Assembly: GCA_945876405.1 (NCBI GenBank)
Contig: CAMCOJ010000053.1
Location: 1-10,142, forward strand
Length of the DNA: 10,142 bases
DNA from: an uncultured Ruminococcus sp.
GTDB lineage: Bacteria; Bacillota; Clostridia; Oscillospirales; Ruminococcaceae
Reading direction: 5' to 3'
Shown here: piece after piece, positions 1 through 10,142 of the stretch
Position numbering within the stretch: the first letter of the stretch is position 1
Layout: every line of letters begins with the position of its first letter
Notes under the pieces: generated by a model
Databases searched by the model: none
Told to the model about the DNA's origin: nothing
The model's input: only the letters and a program-made list of their open reading frames with translations
Position numbers and translations under genes: made by a program

Positions 1-14
1 CTTGGAATTACTGT

Positions 15-46
15 ACCTGTCTGCTTCTCAAACAGACAGGTTTTTT
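15..46 (+). terminator. Rho-independent terminator, probable PyrR-controlled attenuator of the pyr operon leader
   Basis: A perfect 8-bp inverted repeat, CCTGTCTG (16-23) and CAGACAGG (33-40), can be extended by an A15-T41 pair. It encloses a 9-base loop and is followed at once by six T (41-46), the textbook form of an intrinsic terminator. It lies only four bases before the pyrR ribosome binding site, so it must act on transcription of the operon itself and not end an isolated upstream unit. In Bacillota, PyrR with UMP binds a leader RNA stem-loop, prevents an antiterminator from forming, and lets such a terminator stop transcription. The PyrR-binding loop and antiterminator would lie upstream of base 1 and cannot be seen. 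An upstream cistron, such as a transporter or pyrB, ending just before the window is also possible; B. subtilis has such intercistronic attenuators. Confidence 0.85.
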
Positions 47-49
47 ATT

Positions 50-55
50 GGGAGG
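50..55 (+). promoter_or_regulatory. Ribosome binding site of pyrR that fixes its TTG start
   Basis: GGGAGG at 50-55 is a near-perfect anti-16S match. It lies 7 bases before TTG at 63-65. The upstream in-frame TTG at 48-50 overlaps this site and the end of the terminator T-run, and has no site of its own, so translation should begin at 63. Confidence 0.85.
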
Positions 56-62
56 TGTTTCC

Positions 63-602
63 TTGAAGAAGAAAGCAGTTATCCTGGACGAAAATGCAGT
101 TCAGAGGGCTGTAACCAGAATAACTTACGAGATTCTTGAACAGAATAAAGGCGCAGATTCACTCTGCATAGTCGGCATACTGTCAAGAGGTGCATTTTTA
201 GCAAAACGAATAGCTCAGAAAATCTCAGAGATAGAAGGCACTGAAGTGGAATGTGGAATACTTGATATTACGCCTTACAGAGATGATAAGAGAAAAATAT
301 CCGGAAGTGACAGAACAAAGATAGACTTTGATATAAACAATAAGGTAGTCATTTTGGTTGACGATGTTATCTATACCGGAAGAAGTGTCAGAGCAGCAAT
401 AGATGCTGTTATAAAAAGAGGCAGACCGCAGAGAATTCAGCTTGCTGTCCTGATAGACAGAGGACACAGAGAAATTCCGATACGGCCTGATTTTGTCGGA
501 AAGAATCTTCCGACTTCACACGAAGAGACGGTGAAAGTTCAGGTTACCGAGGCAGACTGCTGCGACAGTGTAATCATATTTGAACCGGATGAAAAAATAT
601 GA
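63..602 (+). CDS. pyrR: Bifunctional pyr operon transcriptional attenuator PyrR / uracil phosphoribosyltransferase
   Basis: PyrR is a cytoplasmic RNA-binding regulator of the PRTase fold. With UMP bound it promotes termination in the pyr leader, and many members also make UMP from uracil and PRPP. The product has 179 residues from the TTG at 63, close to the roughly 180 of B. subtilis PyrR. The PRPP-binding motif [10 protein letters not shown], with the acidic pair D100-D101, is intact. The N-terminal [18 protein letters not shown] and the late [12 protein letters not shown] and [12 protein letters not shown] segments are typical of the family. A start at TTG 48 would add five residues (GGVSL after the initiator) encoded by the Shine-Dalgarno region itself, so it is rejected. 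The gene directly follows the leader hairpin and heads the operon it presumably regulates. pyrC starts 18 bases later. Identification is secure; uracil phosphoribosyltransferase activity is inferred from the family. Confidence 0.95.
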
Positions 603-620
603 AAGGGTGAATCAGAAAAA

Positions 621-1901
621 ATGAATCAGAACATAATTATAAAGAACATTTCAGTTGTTGATAAAAACGTAAGCACAGAAGATCACTGTGACATTTATAT
701 CTGTGACGGAATAATAAAAAAAATCGGAATCGCTCCGGATGACAGTTCAGCACTTGTTGTTGACGGTACCGGTCTTACAGCGTTTCCGTCTTTTTTTGAT
801 ATGCATGTTCATTTCAGAGATCCGGGATTTACTCACAAGGAGGATATTATTACCGGTGCTTCGGCGGCAGCGGCCGGTGGTGTAACAGGTGTTCTGTGCA
901 TGCCAAATACCAATCCTCCTGTGGATAACGAAGAAACGATAAAGTATATTAATGACAAAGCTGCTTCAACAGGTATAGATGTATATCAGACTGCATGCAT
1001 TACTTCACAGATGAAGGGAGAAAAGCTTGCAGACTTCGATATGTACAGAAGTCTTGGTGTAAAAGCCGTTTCCGACGACGGAAAGCCGGTTAAGAATGCG
1101 GAACTGATGAGACAGGCTCTTATAGCTGCTGAGGAAAAAGATCTTCTCCTTACTTCACACTGTGAAGATATGGATATCATCGGAAAAGGCATAATGAACA
1201 AAGGTGCTGTATCGGAAAAACTCGGTGTATGCGGTATGGACAGAGCATCTGAAGACAGTATAACAGCAAGGGAAATTGCACTTGCCGGTGCAGCAGGTGT
1301 AAGAGTTCATATTGCACATGTAAGTACAGAGGGAAGTGTGGGATTTATCAGGGACGCAAAAAAACGCGGTCTTAAGGTTACATGTGAAACGGCACCGCAC
1401 TACTTCATTTTTACTGATGAAAAGCTTGAGATGCGCGACGCAGATTACAGAATGAATCCGCCGCTCAGAGAAAAAAGAGATGTGGAAGCAATAACTCAGG
1501 CAGTGATTGACGGTACCATTGACTGTATTGTTACTGACCATGCTCCTCACGCAGCAGAGGAAAAGGCTGACTTTGAAAAGGCACCAAATGGTGTTGTTGG
1601 TCTTGAAACATCATTTGCTGCCACACTTACTTATCTTTACCACACAGGAAAGATTTCACTGCAAAGGATATCTGAGCTCATGTCTGAAAATCCAAGAAAA
1701 CTTTTAGGACTTGAGCCTGTATATATAAGAGAGGGAAGTACCGCTGATATCTGTATAGCAGATACAGAAAAAGAATGGATCGTTGATCCGGACAGGCTTC
1801 ACTCAAAATCCCATAACACATTATTCAAGGGCGTAAAGCTTAAGGGTAAGCCGGTTATGACTATATCAAAAGGCAGAATTATTTTTTCAGAATTAAGTTA
1901 A
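621..1901 (+). CDS. pyrC: Dihydroorotase, class I (PyrC)
   Basis: This enzyme reversibly cyclises N-carbamoyl-L-aspartate to L-dihydroorotate, the third step of UMP synthesis, in the cytoplasm. The 426-residue length matches class I bacterial dihydroorotases of the amidohydrolase superfamily. Metal-ligand motifs are visible in order: MHVHFRDPG with H62 and H64, SDDGKPV with D153, TSHCED with H180, VHIAHVST with H233, and TDHAPH with D306. Having Asp (D153) at the metal-bridging position where E. coli-type enzymes carry a carboxylated lysine fits the Bacillus-type class I enzyme with two zinc ions. MPNTNPPVDN (94-103) and NPPLRE are further family signatures. The ATG at 621 follows GGGTGA (605-610). 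The gene lies 18 bases after pyrR and 19 before pyrF, as part of the operon. Nothing appears broken or truncated. Confidence 0.96.
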   Translation: MNQNIIIKNISVVDKNVSTEDHCDIYICDGIIKKIGIAPDDSSALVVDGTGLTAFPSFFDMHVHFRDPGFTHKEDIITGASAAAAGGVTGVLCMPNTNPPVDNEETIKYINDKAASTGIDVYQTACITSQMKGEKLADFDMYRSLGVKAVSDDGKPVKNAELMRQALIAAEEKDLLLTSHCEDMDIIGKGIMNKGAVSEKLGVCGMDRASEDSITAREIALAGAAGVRVHIAHVSTEGSVGFIRDAKKRGLKVTCETAPHYFIFTDEKLEMRDADYRMNPPLREKRDVEAITQAVIDGTIDCIVTDHAPHAAEEKADFEKAPNGVVGLETSFAATLTYLYHTGKISLQRISELMSENPRKLLGLEPVYIREGSTADICIADTEKEWIVDPDRLHSKSHNTLFKGVKLKGKPVMTISKGRIIFSELS

Positions 1902-1920
1902 TTTAGGGAGGAACGAGAAT

Positions 1921-2841
1921 ATGTCATTTGACAGACTTATAAAAAAAATTATCGAAACAAACAATCCTACAGTTGTCGGACTTGATCCGTTAATCGACTA
2001 TGTTCCGGAATTCATCAGAAACGAATGTTTTATGAAGGACGGTCAGACACTTGAAGCGGCTGCAAAAGCTGTCTTCAGATTCAATAAGGCTATCATTGAT
2101 GAGATTTACGATGTGGTTCCTGCTATCAAGCCACAGGCTGCATATTATGAAATGTTAGGCTGGAGAGGCGTTAAGGTTCTGGAAAAGACTATAAGATATG
2201 CTCAGAGCAAGGGCATGTTTGTAATGACAGACGGTAAGAGAAATGATATTGGCGCAACGATGACAGCCTATGCTGCTGCCCATCTCGGAAACACTGCAGT
2301 TGGTGGTAACCTTATCGAAGCATTCGGCGCAGATGCACTTACAGTAAACGGATATCTTGGTACAGACGGTATCGCACCTCTTCTTGAGATATGTGAAAAG
2401 AAGGACAAGGGTATTTTCGTACTTGTAAAGACATCAAACAAATCAAGCGGTGAACTTCAGGATCAGAAAATTGACGGAACACCTGTTTATGCAGTAATGG
2501 GCGACATGTGCGAAAAGTGGGGTAGTGAACAGATAGGAGAATACGGTTATTCTTCAGTAGGTGCTGTAGTTGGTGCAACATATCCTGAGCAGCTCACTGA
2601 ACTCAGACAGAGACTTCTGCACACATTTTTCCTTGTTCCGGGCTACGGTGCTCAGGGCGGCGGTGCTGAAGGCCTTAAGGGTGCATTTGATGCAAACGGA
2701 CTTGGTGCGGTAATTAACTCATCAAGAGCAGTTATGTGTGCATACAAAAAGGAAGGCTGCGACGAAAGAGAATTTGCAAAGGCTGCAAGACGTGAAGTTC
2801 TCAGAATGCGCGATGATATAAATTCAGTAATTAACAAGTAA
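1921..2841 (+). CDS. pyrF: Orotidine 5'-phosphate decarboxylase, group 2 type (PyrF)
   Basis: This enzyme decarboxylates OMP to UMP, the last step of the de novo pathway. At 306 residues it is of the longer group 2 family and not the roughly 240-residue B. subtilis/E. coli form. Visible signatures are VGLDPLIDYVPEF near the N-terminus, the catalytic D-x-K-x-x-D centre in TDGKRNDIGAT (D104, K106, D109), VNGYLGTDG, VLVKTSNKSSGELQD, VGAVVGATYPEQL, and the late phosphate-binding region VPGYGAQGG followed by VINSSRAV. The start is an ATG preceded by GGGAGGA (1906-1912) at 8-base spacing. It sits between pyrC and carA, whereas in B. subtilis pyrF is near the operon end. The paralogue type and position suggest a lineage-specific operon order. 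Confidence 0.95.
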   Translation: MSFDRLIKKIIETNNPTVVGLDPLIDYVPEFIRNECFMKDGQTLEAAAKAVFRFNKAIIDEIYDVVPAIKPQAAYYEMLGWRGVKVLEKTIRYAQSKGMFVMTDGKRNDIGATMTAYAAAHLGNTAVGGNLIEAFGADALTVNGYLGTDGIAPLLEICEKKDKGIFVLVKTSNKSSGELQDQKIDGTPVYAVMGDMCEKWGSEQIGEYGYSSVGAVVGATYPEQLTELRQRLLHTFFLVPGYGAQGGGAEGLKGAFDANGLGAVINSSRAVMCAYKKEGCDEREFAKAARREVLRMRDDINSVINK

Positions 2842-2857
2842 GAAAGTTAGACTTTTG

Positions 2858-2863
2858 AAGGGA
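2858..2863 (+). promoter_or_regulatory. Ribosome binding site of carA that fixes its ATG start
   Basis: AAGGGA at 2858-2863 lies 9 bases before ATG 2873. An upstream in-frame TTG at 2855-2857 sits immediately before this site and has no purine-rich site of its own, so it would give an unlikely six-residue extension. Confidence 0.7.
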
Positions 2864-2872
2864 TCTGATATA

Positions 2873-3973
2873 ATGGCATTATTCAATAAAAGCGACAAAG
2901 CTTATCTTCTTTTAGCTGACGGAACTGTTCTTGAAGGGCAGTCATTCGGAGCAAAGGGTACAGTTATCGGTGAAGTGGTTTTCACAACTGGTATGACAGG
3001 ATATCAGGAAACACTTACAGATCCGAGTTACTATGGACAGATTGTAGTACAGACTTTCCCGCTCATAGGCAATTATGGCGTAAACAAAGAAGATTTTGAA
3101 TCAAAGAAATCCTACGTAAGCGGATATATCGTAAGAGAGTGGTGCAATACACCTTCAAACTTCCGTAGCGAAGGAAATGTTAATGACTTTATAGCGGAAC
3201 AGAATATTATAGGTATTCATTCCATTGACACAAGGAGTCTCACAAGAAAAATAAGAGAATACGGCGTTATGAACGGTGCCATCACAACAGAAGATGTATA
3301 TTCAAAGAAGGAAGAACTTCTTAAACAGATAAAGGAATATACAATAAAGGATGCAGTTCATACCGTAACAGTGCCGGAAAAAAATGAATACAAGGCAGAA
3401 AACAGCAGGTACAGAGTAGTTCTTATCGACCTCGGATACAAGAGAAATATCCGTCAGGAACTCCTGAAAAGAGGCTGTGATGTCATAGTTGTACCGGACA
3501 GAACCACTGCGGAAGAAATAAAACAGATAAATCCTGACGGTATTATGCTTTCAAACGGACCTGGAGATCCGGCTGAAAATACAGAAGTAATAAAGAATGT
3601 TGCAGAGATAGCAAAACTCGGTATTCCGATTTTCGGAATCTGCATGGGACATCAGATTATGGCTCTTGCACACGGCGCAAAGACAGAAAAATTAAAATAC
3701 GGTCATCGCGGTGCCAACCAGCCGGTTATCGATCTCAGACTGGACAAGACATTTGTAACAAGCCAGAACCACGGATATGCCGTTGTAAATGACAGTGTAA
3801 ACACAGATATTGCAGAAGTTTCACATATTAACGCAAATGACAAAACCTGTGAAGGCGTAAGATATAAGAATGCGAAAGCTTTTACGGTTCAGTTCCATCC
3901 GGAAGCTCATGGAGGACCGCTTGATACAGCTTACTTATTTGATGAATTTATTAAGTTAATGGAGGAAAAGTAA
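2873..3973 (+). CDS. carA: Carbamoyl-phosphate synthase small (glutaminase) subunit
   Basis: CarA hydrolyses glutamine and channels ammonia to CarB for carbamoyl phosphate synthesis, the first committed step toward UMP and also an arginine precursor. From ATG 2873 the product has 366 residues, close to B. subtilis PyrAA. The N-terminal CPSase small-chain domain is recognisable by LADGTVLEGQSFG, EVVFTTGMTGYQETLTDPSY and FPLIGNYGVN. The C-terminal class I glutamine amidotransferase domain has the nucleophile elbow GICMGHQ with C257 and the rest of the triad in QFHPEAHGGP (H342, E344). MLSNGPGDP lies just before it, as expected. The gene abuts carB with no intergenic base: the TAA stop is followed directly by ATG, and the carB ribosome binding site (GGAGGA, 3961-3966) lies inside the end of carA. 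The two subunits are therefore likely translationally coupled. Confidence 0.97.
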   Translation: MALFNKSDKAYLLLADGTVLEGQSFGAKGTVIGEVVFTTGMTGYQETLTDPSYYGQIVVQTFPLIGNYGVNKEDFESKKSYVSGYIVREWCNTPSNFRSEGNVNDFIAEQNIIGIHSIDTRSLTRKIREYGVMNGAITTEDVYSKKEELLKQIKEYTIKDAVHTVTVPEKNEYKAENSRYRVVLIDLGYKRNIRQELLKRGCDVIVVPDRTTAEEIKQINPDGIMLSNGPGDPAENTEVIKNVAEIAKLGIPIFGICMGHQIMALAHGAKTEKLKYGHRGANQPVIDLRLDKTFVTSQNHGYAVVNDSVNTDIAEVSHINANDKTCEGVRYKNAKAFTVQFHPEAHGGPLDTAYLFDEFIKLMEEK

Positions 3974-6900
3974 ATGCCGTTAAGAAAAGACATTAAAAAA
4001 GTATTGGTAATTGGTTCAGGTCCTATTGTTATCGGTCAGGCAGCTGAATTTGACTATGCCGGCACACAGGCCTGCCGTGCACTTAAGCAGGAAGGGCTTG
4101 AAGTTGTTCTTGTAAACTCCAACCCTGCTACGATTATGACAGACAAGGCGATGGCAGACAAAATCTACATCGAACCTCTTACACTTGATGTACTTAAAAG
4201 AATAATTCAGATAGAAAAGCCTGACAGCCTTCTTTCAACACTCGGCGGTCAGACAGGGCTTACACTTTCGATGCAGCTTGCAGAAGAAGGATTTCTTGAA
4301 GCAAACAATGTAAAACTTCTTGGTGCTGATCCGGAAACAATTCACAAAGCTGAGGACAGACAGGCGTTTAAGGATACAATGGAAAAAATCGGTGAGCCGT
4401 GCATTCCTTCAAAAGTAGTTGAAACAATCGAAGATTCAGTGGCATTTGCTGAAGAAATAGGATATCCGGTAATTGTACGTCCTGCATTTACTCTTGGCGG
4501 TACAGGCGGCGGTATTGCAAATGACGAAGCTGAACTTCGCGATATAGCAAAGAACGGTCTAAGACTTTCCCCGATTACACAGATTCTCGTTGAGAAATGT
4601 ATCAGTGGCTGGAAAGAAATAGAGTTTGAAGTTATCAGGGACAGAAAGGATAACTGTATCACAGTCTGCTCCATGGAAAACTTTGACCCGGTCGGAGTTC
4701 ACACAGGGGACAGTATCGTTATTGCTCCTGCAGTAACTCTTACAGACCGCGAATACCAGATGCTCCGTACAGCAGCTATAAACATTATCTCAGAACTCAA
4801 GGTTGAAGGTGGATGCAACTGTCAGTTTGCCCTTCATCCGACTTCATTTGAATACAGCGTAATCGAAGTTAATCCGCGAGTATCACGTTCCTCAGCACTT
4901 GCCTCAAAGGCAACGGGTTATCCGATTGCCAAGGTTGCAGCAAAGATTGCTATCGGTTATACACTTGATGAAATCATAAATCAGGTAACCGGAAAGACAT
5001 ACGCATGTTTTGAACCTGCACTTGACTACGTTGTTGTAAAGTTCCCTAAGTGGGCGTTTGACAAGTTTGTATACGCAAAGAGAACTCTCGGTACACAGAT
5101 GAAGGCTACCGGTGAGGTAATGGCTATCGGTACAAGCTTTGAACAGGCTATGATGAAGGCTGTAAGATCAATAGAACTTGGTATCGACTCTATGAATCTT
5201 AAAAAGCTTGAAATCCTTTCAACAGAAGAAATACTTGAAAAGCTCAAAACTGTAGATGATGAACGTTCATTCCAGGTTTATGAAGCACTCAAGAGAGGTA
5301 TTTCAGTTGAACAGCTTCATGAAATAACAATGATTGACTGCTGGTTCCTTAACAAGCTTCTCAACATGGTAAATCTTGAAAAGTGGCTTGCTGAAGGTGA
5401 ACTTACAGAGGAAAAATATCTCACTGCAAAGAACTACGGTTATCTTGACAGCACAATCGAAAGAATGAGCGGTCAGAAATGTCCTATGCACAAGAGTGCT
5501 GTATTCAAGATGGTTGATACATGTGCCGGCGAGTTCAAGGCAGAAACACCTTACTTCTACTCAACATTTGACGAGGAGAACGAGGCAAAACAGTTTATCG
5601 AGAGAACTGATACAGGAAAGAAGAAGGTTATCGTTTTCGGTTCAGGTCCTATTCGTATCGGACAGGGTATTGAGTTTGACTACTGTTCAGTACACTGTGT
5701 ATGGACTCTTAAGGAACTCGGTTATGAAGCGGTAATATGCAACAACAATCCGGAAACAGTTTCAACAGACTTCGATACAGGTGACAGACTCTATTTTGAC
5801 CCGCTTACAAAGGAAGATGTTGAAGCTATTATCGAAACAGAGCAGCCTTACGGTGTTGTAGTTCAGTTCGGCGGACAGACTGCCATCAAGCTCACAAAAC
5901 ACCTTTCAGATATGGGAGTAAGAATTCTCGGTACGCAGGCTGACAGTATTGACGCAGCTGAAGACAGAGAAAGATTTGATGAGATTCTTGAAAAATGCGG
6001 TATTCCGCGTCCGCAGGGCCACACAGTAATGACAACTGAAGAAGCTGTTGCTGCTGCTGAGGATCTCGGATATCCTGTACTTATGAGACCTTCATACGTA
6101 CTTGGCGGTCAGAATATGATTATCGCACATTCCGAAAAGGATATCGTTGAATACATGGGTATCATCACAAGAACAATGATTGAAAATCCTGTTCTTATTG
6201 ATAAGTATATGATGGGTACTGAGGTTGAGGTCGATGCAATATGCGACGGAAAAGACTTTCTCATTCCTGGTATTATGGAACACATTGAGCGTGCCGGTGT
6301 ACATTCAGGTGACTCCATCTCAGTATATCCTGCTCAGACTCTTTCAAAGAAAATAAGAGAGACAATTATCGACTACACAAAGAAGCTTGCTCTTGAACTC
6401 AAGGTAGTCGGACTTGTAAATATCCAGTATGTTGTATACAACAACGAAGTATACGTAATCGAAGTAAATCCTCGTTCTTCAAGAACAGTTCCGTATATCA
6501 GCAAGGTTACAGGAATACCTATGGTTGACATCGCTACAAAGCTTATGTTCGGTGCAACACTTAAGGAACTTGGCTACGAAAGCGGTCTCTATCCGGAGGG
6601 CGAATATGTAGCAGTCAAGGTACCGGTATTCAGCTTTGAAAAGCTTCATGATGTTGATACGATGCTCGGACCTGAAATGAAGTCAACAGGTGAATGTCTT
6701 GGTATTGCGAAAAACTTTGAAGATGCACTTCTGAAGGGTCTTGTTGCTGCCGGATTTGACCTGAAAAAAGAGGGCGGAGTATTTATAACTGTACGTGATA
6801 CAGACAAGCAGGAAGTTATTGCAATTGCAGACAAGTTCAGTCAGATGGGCTTCGACCTGTATGCAACAGCCGGAACGGCCGGTGTTCTTAACAGAAACAT

Positions 6901-7165
6901 GATTGCTACAAATCAGGTAAACCGTGTATCTGAAGCTGAACCAAATGTAATGAACCTTCTTGAGAGCGGAAAGATTCACTATGTTATTTCCACATCTGAG
7001 AAAGGAAGACTTCCGGCGAGAGACAGTGTTAAGATGAGACGTAAATCAGTGGAACGTTCAATCTGTTCTCTCACAGCGATAGACACAGCAAAGGCACTTG
7101 CAAATGTTCTTATGACAAACAGAACAATAGCAGATGTTGAGCTTGTGGATATCACAAAAATCTAA
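3974..7165 (+). CDS. carB: Carbamoyl-phosphate synthase large subunit
   Basis: CarB uses two ATP, bicarbonate and ammonia from CarA to form carbamoyl phosphate. Its 1063 residues match the family (about 1070). The two homologous ATP-grasp halves are clear. The first opens with GSGPIVIGQAAEFDYAGTQA (from residue 14) and has RPAFTLGGTGGGI and EVNPRVSRSSALASKATGYP. The second opens with GSGPIRIGQGIEFDY (from residue 556) and has RPSYVLGGQNM (R705 on) and EVNPRSSRTVPYISKVTG. An oligomerisation region lies between them. From about residue 934 comes the MGS-like allosteric domain (ITVRDTDKQEV, LYATAGTAG, KSVERSICSLTAIDTAKA), where the family binds UMP as inhibitor. Q713 replaces the arginine common in LGGRAM. 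The ribosome binding site is within carA, and pyrK begins 23 bases downstream. Only one carAB pair is seen here, so it may also serve arginine synthesis. Confidence 0.98.
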   Translation: MPLRKDIKKVLVIGSGPIVIGQAAEFDYAGTQACRALKQEGLEVVLVNSNPATIMTDKAMADKIYIEPLTLDVLKRIIQIEKPDSLLSTLGGQTGLTLSMQLAEEGFLEANNVKLLGADPETIHKAEDRQAFKDTMEKIGEPCIPSKVVETIEDSVAFAEEIGYPVIVRPAFTLGGTGGGIANDEAELRDIAKNGLRLSPITQILVEKCISGWKEIEFEVIRDRKDNCITVCSMENFDPVGVHTGDSIVIAPAVTLTDREYQMLRTAAINIISELKVEGGCNCQFALHPTSFEYSVIEVNPRVSRSSALASKATGYPIAKVAAKIAIGYTLDEIINQVTGKTYACFEPALDYVVVKFPKWAFDKFVYAKRTLGTQMKATGEVMAIGTSFEQAMMKAVRSIELGIDSMNLKKLEILSTEEILEKLKTVDDERSFQVYEALKRGISVEQLHEITMIDCWFLNKLLNMVNLEKWLAEGELTEEKYLTAKNYGYLDSTIERMSGQKCPMHKSAVFKMVDTCAGEFKAETPYFYSTFDEENEAKQFIERTDTGKKKVIVFGSGPIRIGQGIEFDYCSVHCVWTLKELGYEAVICNNNPETVSTDFDTGDRLYFDPLTKEDVEAIIETEQPYGVVVQFGGQTAIKLTKHLSDMGVRILGTQADSIDAAEDRERFDEILEKCGIPRPQGHTVMTTEEAVAAAEDLGYPVLMRPSYVLGGQNMIIAHSEKDIVEYMGIITRTMIENPVLIDKYMMGTEVEVDAICDGKDFLIPGIMEHIERAGVHSGDSISVYPAQTLSKKIRETIIDYTKKLALELKVVGLVNIQYVVYNNEVYVIEVNPRSSRTVPYISKVTGIPMVDIATKLMFGATLKELGYESGLYPEGEYVAVKVPVFSFEKLHDVDTMLGPEMKSTGECLGIAKNFEDALLKGLVAAGFDLKKEGGVFITVRDTDKQEVIAIADKFSQMGFDLYATAGTAGVLNRNMIATNQVNRVSEAEPNVMNLLESGKIHYVISTSEKGRLPARDSVKMRRKSVERSICSLTAIDTAKALANVLMTNRTIADVELVDITKI

Positions 7166-7188
7166 TGTGAGAAAAGGAATGAATAAAT

Positions 7189-7953
7189 ATGAAATATACA
7201 CAGGGAAAATATCTCCTGCTTGAGAAAAAAACTCTTGCAAAACAGATATATGATTTTACAATACTCTGCCCGGAAGTAGCTCAGGCTGCTTCCGTAGGTC
7301 AGTTTGTAAATATTCTTCCTGAAGGTCATACACTCAGGAGACCGATTTCAATCTGCGGAATTGATAAGGAAAAGGGAACACTCAGAATCGTATTTATGGC
7401 AAAGGGTGATGGTACACTTAAACTTGCTGATACTCCAAAGGGTGCAAATCTTGATATTGTCGGACCGCTCGGACATGGCTTTACTATGAACGATGTATCC
7501 GGAAAGACAATAATAACAGGCGGAGGAATAGGTGTTCCTCCTCTCCTTCCTCTTGCAAAACATTACGGAAAAGATGCTGTTGTTATTCTTGGTTTCAGAA
7601 GTGCCGATGCAGTGATTCTGAAGCAGGATTTTGAAGCAACAGGTGCAGAAGTAATTATCTGTACAGATGACGGTTCATATGGTGTTCACGGTATGGTAAC
7701 GGTTCCTCTTGCAGAAAAAATTTCAGGAGCATCTCAGGTTCTTTCATGCGGACCTATTCCTATGCTTAAGGCTATTTCAGCAGTTGCTGAAGAAAACAGT
7801 GTTCCGTGTCAGGTTTCACTTGAAGAAAGAATGGGCTGTGGCGTAGGCGCCTGTCTTGTATGTGCATGCAAGGTAAAGAAGAACGGTGAGGAACGGTTCG
7901 GACATGTATGCAAGGACGGCCCTGTATTTGACTCAAAGGAGGTAATGTGGTAA
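7189..7953 (+). CDS. pyrK: Dihydroorotate dehydrogenase (NAD+) electron transfer subunit PyrK
   Basis: PyrK carries FAD and a [2Fe-2S] cluster and passes electrons from PyrDB to NAD+ in a PyrK2-PyrDB2 heterotetramer. The product has 254 residues, the usual length. The ferredoxin-reductase-like FAD domain shows RRPISICG (R50-R51-P-I-S). The nucleotide-binding part begins with GGGIGVPPLLPLAK and ends with LSCGPIPMLKA. The iron-sulfur cysteines are in order C217-x4-C222-x2-C225-x15-C241, within RMGCGVGACLVCACKV and HVCKDGPVF, which agrees with the known PyrK spacing. ATG 7189 follows AAAAGGA (7172-7178) with about 10 bases of spacing. Its TAA stop (7951-7953) shares one base with the ATG of pyrD, which fits coupled synthesis of the two partners. 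Confidence 0.96.
   Translation: MKYTQGKYLLLEKKTLAKQIYDFTILCPEVAQAASVGQFVNILPEGHTLRRPISICGIDKEKGTLRIVFMAKGDGTLKLADTPKGANLDIVGPLGHGFTMNDVSGKTIITGGGIGVPPLLPLAKHYGKDAVVILGFRSADAVILKQDFEATGAEVIICTDDGSYGVHGMVTVPLAEKISGASQVLSCGPIPMLKAISAVAEENSVPCQVSLEERMGCGVGACLVCACKVKKNGEERFGHVCKDGPVFDSKEVMW
7937..7942 (+). promoter_or_regulatory. Ribosome binding site of pyrD inside the end of pyrK
   Basis: AGGAGG (7937-7942) lies 10 bases before ATG 7953 but only 4 bases before the competing in-frame GTG 7947. The spacing favours the ATG, which forms a TAATG stop-start overlap with pyrK. Confidence 0.7.
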
Positions 7954-8864
7954 TGGCTGATCTTTCAGTAAATGTAGCCGGTATAGATTTTAAAAATCCT
8001 GTTATTCCGGCATCAGGTGTATTTGGATACGGACGTGAATACGAAGAATTCTATCCGCTTTCAAAACTCGGCGGTATATCCACAAAGGGCACAACCGGTC
8101 AGATGAGAACGGGTAACCTTGCTCCGAGAATCGCTGAAACTCCTATGGGTATGCTTAATTCCGTAGGCCTTCAGAATCCAGGAATAGACAGATTCATAAG
8201 CCACGAACTTCCTAACCTTATGCAGAAGGATACAGTAATTATTGCAAACATTGCTGGTTCAACTCCTGAGGAATGTGCTGAAGTTGCATCAAAGCTTGAT
8301 GAAACAGATGTACACATGATAGAACTCAACATCTCATGCCCGAATGTTAAGCAGGGCGGAGCAGCTTTCGGTGTATCCTGTGAAGGTGCTTCAGCAGTAA
8401 CAAAGATAGTAAGAAATGCTACAAAGAAGCCGCTCATCGTTAAACTCTCACCAAATGTAACGGACATTGCTTCAATAGCAAAGGCTGTTGAAGCAGAGGG
8501 TGCGGATTCTGTATCACTTATCAATACAATTCTCGGAATGCGTATAGATATCAACACAGGCAGACCGGTTCTGAGAAACAACTGCGGCGGTATGTCAGGT
8601 CCAGCAGTATTTCCTGTAGCTGTACGTATGGTATGGCAGGTTGCAAATGCAGTTAAGATTCCTGTTATAGGTATGGGCGGCATTTCATCAGGCAGAGATG
8701 CCATTGAGATGATGATGGCCGGTGCCTCTGCAGTTCAGGTAGGTGCAGCTATCATTACAGATCCTTTTGCACCGGTAAAGATTATTGAAGAGATGAACCA
8801 GTTCCTCGATGAAAAGGGCATCAGTTCTGTAAAGGACATTATCGGTTCAGTAAAGCCATGGTAA
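7953..8864 (+). CDS. pyrD: Dihydroorotate dehydrogenase 1B catalytic subunit (PyrDB)
   Basis: This is the FMN-containing catalytic subunit that oxidises dihydroorotate to orotate. As class 1B it needs PyrK, encoded just upstream, to reduce NAD+. The 303-residue TIM-barrel protein begins MADLSVNVAGIDFKNPVIPASG. Visible family features are GGISTKGTT (K45), the substrate loop MLNSVGLQNPG (N70), the active-site cysteine C129 in NISCPNVKQGG (a cysteine marks class 1 enzymes, serine class 2), VKLSPNVTD, INTILGM, SGPAVFPVA, and the FMN phosphate-binding GMGGISSGRDA followed by AGASAVQVG. A GTG at 7947 would add two residues but lies too near the ribosome binding site, so ATG 7953 is preferred. A long open frame on the opposite strand (8171-8704) has no recognisable product and is treated as a shadow. 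Confidence 0.96.
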   Translation: MADLSVNVAGIDFKNPVIPASGVFGYGREYEEFYPLSKLGGISTKGTTGQMRTGNLAPRIAETPMGMLNSVGLQNPGIDRFISHELPNLMQKDTVIIANIAGSTPEECAEVASKLDETDVHMIELNISCPNVKQGGAAFGVSCEGASAVTKIVRNATKKPLIVKLSPNVTDIASIAKAVEAEGADSVSLINTILGMRIDINTGRPVLRNNCGGMSGPAVFPVAVRMVWQVANAVKIPVIGMGGISSGRDAIEMMMAGASAVQVGAAIITDPFAPVKIIEEMNQFLDEKGISSVKDIIGSVKPW

Positions 8865-8883
8865 CCGGAAGGAAATCTGACGT

Positions 8884-9303
8884 ATGAAGATAATGGCTGT
8901 TGATTTCGGTGACTCAAGAACAGGCCTTGCAGTTTGTGACAAGTCTGAATTTCTTGCTTCACCGGCAGGTGTGATTGAAGAAAAAGATTTTGAAAAATGC
9001 ATAGAAAAGGTAGCTGCAGCTGCTAAGGAAAATGCAGCAGAGGAAATTGTGGTCGGTTATCCGAAAAATATGAATAATACAATTGGCGAAAGAGCACAGA
9101 AATGTGCTCTGTTTGCTGAAAAACTCGCAGAACTCGTTGATGTTCCTGTAAAATTATGGGATGAAAGAAGCACTACAGTTTCTGCCCACTACTACCTTAA
9201 CCAGACAAATACCAGAGGCAAAAAAAGAAAAGCGGTTGTTGATGCGGTTGCAGCAACAATAATACTTGAAAGTTATTTAGGGTTTAGAAAAAATACAAAT
9301 TAA
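8884..9303 (+). CDS. ruvX: RuvX/YqgF family RNase H-fold nuclease (putative pre-16S rRNA nuclease, Holliday junction resolvase-like)
   Basis: Members of this family have an RNase H-like fold. They have been linked to maturation of the 5' end of 16S rRNA and, from structural similarity to RuvC, proposed as Holliday junction resolvases. The 139-residue product is the usual size. It has the first acidic motif VDFGDSRTGLAV (D7), the strand and loop EEIVVGYPKNMNN, then LWDERSTTVSAHYYL and the C-terminal KAVVDAVAATIILESYL with the last conserved aspartate. The loop reads GYP where GLP is more common. ATG 8884 follows GGAAGGA (8867-8873). The gene lies 19 bases after pyrD with no terminator between them, so it is probably cotranscribed with the pyr genes. 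I see no pathway link to pyrimidine synthesis, and it is not a usual pyr operon member. Confidence 0.92.
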   Translation: MKIMAVDFGDSRTGLAVCDKSEFLASPAGVIEEKDFEKCIEKVAAAAKENAAEEIVVGYPKNMNNTIGERAQKCALFAEKLAELVDVPVKLWDERSTTVSAHYYLNQTNTRGKKRKAVVDAVAATIILESYLGFRKNTN

Positions 9304-9314
9304 GAGGTTTTTTT

Positions 9315-10096
9315 ATGAAGAGACTTATCGCATTTTCTGCAGCACTTGCCATGATATATTCCATTCCGGCTTTTGCTGTATATTCGGAAACATCAGAAGA
9401 CACAGTGATATCAGCTGAAGATACTTCTGCTGAAGAAGGCGGAGAAGAGGAAACTGATACTACTGTTTGGCATGTTAATTTTAATGAACCTGCAGAAGCA
9501 GAAATGACAGACGATACAGAAAACAGAGAATACTCAGTTCTTGTCATCAATCCGGGAGGTGAAGCCCGCGGAGGAACTGACAAGTGGGATGTTCAGTTCA
9601 GAATCAGAGGAATATCAATTGAAGAAGGACATGATTACAGAATAACATATCGTATTTCCTCGGACACCGAAGGAAGCTACTACACAAAGATAGGCAACCT
9701 TGATTCATCAACGGTTGGTGAAGCTGTGGCAGGTGAGGTATGGCACAATCAGTTCGGTATTTCAACGATAACAAGTTATACTGAAGGAACGGTACAGCAG
9801 GATGCTGAAACATCATACGGCAGTGCATGGAATAATCAGAAAATAGGAATGGGTGACACCCTCAATGTTACATGTAACTTCAAAGGAATAGCAACTATCC
9901 CCGAAGCCGAGTGGTCATTCTTCCTCGGGGGAGCAGGTGCAACTTCAGCAAGTGACTGTTTTGCTCCCGGAGCAACAGTAAGATTTTCGAACCTGACTCT
10001 AACAGACCTTACAACAGGCGAAACACTTGTAAGCGGATATGCATTTAATCAAAGTGATGTTAAAGGCGATATCAACTGTGACGGAAAGGCTGACGT
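9315..10096 (+). CDS. Secreted carbohydrate-binding module protein with type I dockerin (cellulosomal), 3' end missing
   Basis: This is the start of an exported, probably cellulosome-attached protein. Residues 1-21 form a signal peptide: MKR, a hydrophobic core, then the AFA cleavage site before V22. Residues 22-50 are an acidic Ser/Thr/Glu-rich linker. About 51-240 is a beta-rich region resembling carbohydrate-binding modules of Ruminococcus enzymes: TVWHVNFNEPAEAEM, INPGGEARGGTDKWDVQFRI, EEGHDYRITYRISSD, WSFFLGGAG, then RFSNLTLTDLTTGE closing the sandwich. From G251, GDINCDGKADV is the first calcium-binding loop of a type I dockerin (D252, N254, D256, D260), expected to continue with a helix and a second repeat. 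The true sequence stops at codon 261, where adapter sequence begins. The ATG follows AAGAGG (9302-9307), only 11 bases after ruvX. The CBM family number and any catalytic module cannot be assigned. The cellulosome role is inferred from the dockerin. Confidence 0.85.
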
Positions 10097-10142
10097 CTGT
10101 CTCTTATACACATCTGACGCTGCCGACGATACTCCTTGTGTA
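10097..10142 (+). other. Illumina Nextera adapter contamination at the contig end (not genomic)
   Basis: The 19-base Tn5 mosaic end CTGTCTCTTATACACATCT occupies 10097-10115. It is followed by GACGCTGCCGACGA (10116-10129), the complement of the Nextera i5-side adapter tail. Next is TACTCCTT (10130-10137), the complement of index AAGGAGTA (known to me as Nextera S507/N507). The last five bases, GTGTA (10138-10142), begin the complement of the P5 arm. The order and lengths match a read that ran through a short insert into the adapter. The reading frame of the preceding gene stays open through it and yields the artefact peptide CLLYTSDAADDTPCV. The first C (10097) could by chance also be genomic. 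Confidence 0.98.

What the first reader, a model, noticed from the sequence alone, without database searches (positions are those of the whole stretch)
10097..10142. Window ends in untrimmed Nextera adapter including a readable i5 index
The last 46 bases reproduce, in exact order, the Tn5 mosaic end, the adapter tail, an 8-base index complement (AAGGAGTA on the other strand, index S507 as I recall it) and five bases of P5. This is synthetic sequence at a contig end. Any annotation or homology claim based on the final 15 residues of the last open frame is false. From memory, LYTSDAAD-type C-termini recur across unrelated database proteins for the same reason, so such protein clusters should not be read as a conserved motif.
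Basis: partly seen in the sequence, partly recalled or inferred. Interest (0 to 1): 0.85.

Follow-up and report, generated by a model that had tools for sequence, protein, structure and literature searches.

The report
Untrimmed Nextera adapter at contig end
The last 46 bases of this bacterial contig are left-over sequencing-kit adapter, not bacterial DNA, so the end of the last predicted protein is fake; this is an ordinary, already known kind of assembly artefact.

Summary
The finding is correct. Window 10097-10142 is, base for base, the 19-base Tn5 mosaic end, the 14-base Nextera i5 arm, the complement of an 8-base index (AAGGAGTA; S507 by recall) and five bases of P5. The window is a whole contig of a 434-contig assembly; its nearest protein relatives are named Oscillospiraceae. 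A relative of the same genus (G007) is collinear with window 1-10096 at 96.1% DNA identity and the match stops exactly at 10096. There the relative's gene goes on into a dockerin type I domain that the window lacks. The same genome holds 294 mosaic-end sites with at most 2 mismatches. All 159 sites whose place could be checked lie at contig ends, in both adapter arms, each with one dominant index. The native bases before 289 junctions show a 9-bp palindromic preference, as expected of Tn5 cutting. None of the 10 other held genomes of the genus has the exact mosaic end. The LYTSDAAD claim also holds: 118 of 120 listed hits to the last 40 residues carry it, though often not at the very C-terminus. 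Ordinary artefact; low interest.

The parts
10097..10115 (+). Tn5 mosaic end (19 bp), joined to the insert
   Evidence: Exact; the only match in the window with up to 3 mismatches, 0 in 200 shuffles
10116..10129 (+). Nextera i5-side adapter arm, complement strand (name recalled)
   Evidence: Exact GACGCTGCCGACGA; mosaic end + arm occurs 135 times in the same genome (69+66)
10130..10137 (+). Complement of the 8-base i5 index AAGGAGTA (S507 by recall)
   Evidence: 98 of the 100 listed (of 125) i5-arm ends of this genome carry the same TACTCCTT, the other two differ by one base
10138..10142 (+). First five bases of the P5 complement (GTGTA; identity with P5 recalled)
   Evidence: Read directly; longer copies elsewhere (L049, L083, L104) go on from GTGTA into GATCTCGGTGGTCG
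9315..10096 (+). Native part of a gene for a protein with a weak CBM_4_9-like match, cut inside its dockerin domain by the contig end; the 276-aa open frame to 10142 is a fusion with adapter
   Evidence: 260 of 260 residues identical to the G007 protein, which is 312 aa with Dockerin_1 at 250-305; no dockerin match in the window's version; the CBM_4_9 match is below Pfam's cut-off (21.4 against 25.9 bits)

Best explanation
It is Nextera adapter read-through that was not trimmed before assembly. During library preparation Tn5 transposase cut the bacterial DNA at 10096/10097 and joined the mosaic end there. The insert was shorter than the read, so the read ran through the insert into mosaic end, i5 arm, index and P5. 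The untrimmed bases were assembled as the contig's last 46 bases and translate into 15 false residues. Shown here: identity of the sequence, exact boundary, recurrence at other contig ends of the assembly, and a Tn5-like cutting signature. Inferred: that inserts shorter than the reads were the cause, and that the adapter is why the contig stops there.
For: Exact element order; 145+149 mosaic-end sites with at most 2 mismatches in the 434-contig genome, 0 for the reversed-pattern control; in the 289-site set all 146 reverse-strand sites have the mosaic end within 52 bases of a contig start, and all 13 forward sites whose contig length was fetched have it starting within 51 bases of the contig end; one dominant index per arm; 96.1% collinear relative stopping exactly at 10096; native continuation into a dockerin domain; 9-bp palindromic profile at -9..-1, correlation 0.928 with its own reverse complement against -0.50 to 0.50 at six other centres; no exact mosaic end in 10 genus mates.
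Against: No raw reads could be mapped. My test of a specific break mechanism (tail length set by the assembler's k-mer uniqueness) found no correlation: rho -0.07 for 48 i5 ends and -0.12 for 50 i7 ends. The window's own junction scores 3 of 7 against the recalled Tn5 target consensus, slightly below the mean of 3.55. Positions -10 and -14, outside the 9 bp, also depart from the background.
Confidence: 0.995

Rival explanations
1. A natural Tn5/IS50-like transposon end inserted in the dockerin gene.
For: The mosaic end derives from IS50 ends (recalled).
Against: It is followed by the Nextera arm, a constant index and P5 bases. A second arm with its own index occurs at other ends. The 10 genus mates have no exact copy. 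The hyperactive mosaic end differs from both natural IS50 ends (recalled).
Confidence: 0.001
2. Deliberate in-vivo tagging: the organism carries an engineered mosaic-end transposon insertion.
For: The mosaic end is used in such kits (recalled).
Against: 294 sites in one assembly, and sequencing-index arms, are not expected of an engineered insertion.
Confidence: 0.001
3. The bases are adapter, but from a chimeric joint of adapter and other DNA rather than simple short-insert read-through.
For: Copies inside public records exist: L141, L202 and L211; MK170160.1 near 22.7 kb and MZ092003.1 near 27.9 kb.
Against: In this genome the 159 sites that could be placed are at contig ends, the 146 reverse ones with tails of 19-52 bases, as read-through would give.
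Confidence: 0.003

Closest known systems
Illumina adapter contamination at contig ends of microbial genome databases (PMC11536531; parts 1 and 2 of 3 of the text read)
   Same: Adapter sequence concentrated at contig ends, forward at ends and reverse complement at beginnings, hundreds of copies in the worst assembly; thought to break contigs.
   Different: That study searched the TruSeq 12-mer; 'Nextera', 'transposase' and 'protein' were not found in its main text. Here the adapter is Nextera, and false protein tails are examined.
Nextera adapter with Tn5 mosaic end and i5/i7 index (kit design recalled)
   Same: All 46 bases; both arms present in the assembly, each with one dominant index.
   Different: No difference seen in these 46 bases.

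Membership tests
Nextera adapter read-through | Mosaic end directly followed by the i5 or i7 arm, an 8-base index and P5/P7 bases | tested here: met
   (oligo sequences recalled)
Nextera adapter read-through | Found at contig ends, outward-reading | tested here: met
   146 of 146 reverse sites have the mosaic end within 52 bases of a contig start; 13 of 13 forward sites with fetched contig length have it starting within 51 bases of the contig end. For the other 130 of 143 forward sites no contig length was fetched; their coordinates fall in step with contig rank (6 inversions, largest 41 bases)
Nextera adapter read-through | One index per arm across the library | tested here: met
   98 of 100 listed of 125, the other two one base off; 100 of 100 listed of 120
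Nextera adapter read-through | Tn5 target preference in the native bases at the junction | tested here: met
   289 junctions, profile correlation 0.928 at centre -5, mean consensus score 3.55 against 2.13-2.96 at six shifts; consensus recalled
Nextera adapter read-through | Soft clipping and coverage collapse of raw reads at the junction | not testable with these tools
   No raw reads held
Natural Tn5/IS50 end | Transposon body beside the end | tested here: not met
   Only arm, index and P5 bases follow before the contig ends; homologous gene uninterrupted in G007

The most novel reading that the evidence does not exclude
Untrimmed Nextera sequence forms spurious 'conserved' peptide segments in protein databases on both sides of real proteins: CLLYTSDAADD... 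on the C-terminal side, and strings with MCIRD, DVYKRQ or RRCVQET on the N-terminal side, so that unrelated proteins could be linked into false clusters. In one search all 15 proteins whose aligned upstream strings were printed (of 28 in 4 clusters) show one of the three.
Probability: 0.8. Interest if true: 0.25.

Novelty: not a real feature. Interest (0 to 1): 0.06.

Why it matters
Only as data hygiene. The 46 bases should be trimmed here, as should the other adapter-bearing ends of this assembly. The last protein should be annotated as truncated in its dockerin domain, and peptide strings from Nextera adapters should be masked before protein clustering.

Tried and rejected
A k-mer model for the tail length (the assembler stops where adapter k-mers stop being unique) predicted shorter tails where native junction bases are shared with other ends. 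Rho was -0.07 (p 0.64, 48 ends) and -0.12 (p 0.41, 50 ends), and the upper bound on tail plus shared length was no sharper than in permutations (1073 and 1101 of 2000 reached it); the log-probability version leaned the expected way without being significant (rho -0.18, p 0.075, 98 ends). Not supported. The test used only the 200 ends whose arm was listed, 98 of them reverse with known tail.

A natural transposon end and an engineered insertion were rejected (see rivals). Rfam: no match in the window at gathering scores. tRNA: none. The E. coli complete-genome collection: no match to the 46 bases.

My first count of viral contigs used the edge of the fetched stretch (116 of 120); against contig ends it is 114 of 120, because for L202 and L211 the stretch edge is inside the contig.

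Paper searches: LYTSDAAD gave 0 papers; some searches gave listings, from which only PMC11536531 was opened.

Full report
Observation. The last 46 bases (10097-10142) read mosaic end, i5 arm, TACTCCTT, GTGTA without a mismatch. The mosaic end occurs once in the window even with three mismatches allowed, and never in 200 shuffles. The names of the parts and of index S507 (and N703 for the other arm's AGGCAGAA) are recalled. In public contigs AAGGAGTA is one of a small set of octamers after the same arm: 6 of 101 readable indices in genome contigs (18 distinct) and 2 of 95 in viral contigs (11 distinct).

Boundary. The window is a whole contig, G000:C53. G007, of the same genus, aligns over window 1-10096 at 96.1% identity with one gap, and the alignment ends exactly there. 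Its protein is 312 aa: residues 1-260 are identical to the window's, residue 261 is V in both, then TDLSVM... in G007 and CLLYTS... in the window. G007's protein and the database relative P0001 have a Dockerin_1 domain at residues 250-305; the window's version has none. In one search I gave only the first 260 residues of the G007 protein, and no dockerin was found; one search gave all 312.

The same assembly. With up to two mismatches the mosaic end occurs 145 times forward and 149 times reverse in 2,537,096 bases, and the pattern read backwards 0 times. Mosaic end with i5 arm, any index and G: 125 sites; of 100 listed, 98 have TACTCCTT and 2 differ by one base. Mosaic end with i7 arm, any index and A: 120 sites; 100 of 100 listed have AGGCAGAA. 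Four searches listed 289 exact sites with 15 native bases (84+54+58+93), on 243 contigs, 46 of them with two sites. The 146 reverse sites have tails of 19-52 bases, most often 45. Of the 13 forward sites with a fetched contig length, all start within 51 bases of the contig end. Three ends with tails of 51-52 bases were read: C153 and C184 show a base change inside the arm, and C90 a change further out (normal sequence partly recalled).

Tn5 signature. The native bases before these 289 junctions are biased at -9 to -1 in a palindromic way: G 0.35 at -9 with C 0.43 at -1, T 0.43 at -8 with A 0.43 at -2, T 0.44 at -6 with A 0.43 at -4. The profile correlates 0.928 with its own reverse complement about -5, against -0.50 to 0.50 at the six other centres. 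The mean match to the recalled consensus GNTYWRANC is 3.55 of 7 at the junction against 2.13-2.96 at six shifts. Positions -10 and -14 also depart from the background taken from -15 to -11 (chi2 24.1 and 18.3), so the bias is not confined to the 9 bp. The window's own junction scores 3 of 7. On the whole this is what in-vitro tagmentation predicts.

Elsewhere. Mosaic end plus i5 arm: 2 of 297 family genomes, G000 itself and G268, the latter at a contig end with another index. Exact mosaic end alone: 0 of 10 other genomes of the genus. Of the 12 others, 9 lie within 466 bases of that end and 3 (L141, L202, L211) lie deeper inside. The 46 bases match 27 of 50,697 phage records, some of them the same phage under two accessions, and nothing in the E. 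coli complete-genome collection.

False protein tails. A search with the last 40 residues gave 146 hits and listed 120. 118 of the 120 contain CLLYTSDAADDT; the other two are the true relatives P0001 and P0002. The 118 have E-values from 0.02 to 7, so they are retrieved by this string rather than by homology, and the search is biased to this index. By hand count of the listing about 45 of the 118 carry a precomputed Pfam domain, from many different families. I compared the parts upstream of the string in 114 of the 118 (4 dropped because the string lies within the first 40 residues): 92 of 6,441 pairs are similar at E 1e-3, involving 28 proteins in 4 clusters. The aligned strings printed for 15 of the 28 all contain MCIRD, DVYKRQ or RRCVQET.

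Known or new. PMC11536531 (parts 1 and 2 of 3 of the text read) describes the same kind of artefact for the TruSeq adapter in 15,657 MGnify species reference assemblies. This is one more instance, with a Nextera adapter. It is not a biological feature.

Noticed in passing
window 3-9303: Ordinary pyrimidine biosynthesis operon by Pfam: phosphoribosyltransferase (pyrR-like by position, inferred; 3-602), amidohydrolase/dihydroorotase-like (621-1901), orotidine decarboxylase (1921-2841), carbamoyl-phosphate synthase small and large chain (2855-3973, 3974-7165), dihydroorotate dehydrogenase B Fe-S subunit (7189-7953), dihydroorotate dehydrogenase (7947-8864); then a RuvX gene (8884-9303)..
   Followed up: partly
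L141 2154-2186, L202 4061-4093, L211 8-40; phage records MK170160.1 near 22.7 kb and MZ092003.1 near 27.9 kb: Mosaic end plus i5 arm lying inside public records rather than at their ends, so probably misjoined or gapped assemblies; L141 has NN just after the index.
   Followed up: partly
OY978796.1 positions 171-212: Adapter-like match (97.6% over 42 bases) inside a gene annotated as terminase large subunit and flagged pseudogene, near the start of a phage record marked circular.
   Followed up: partly
proteins (e.g. P0029, P0048, P0050): N-terminal strings that look like translated mosaic end occur in some of the same database proteins, many of them from eukaryotic transcriptomes.
   Followed up: partly
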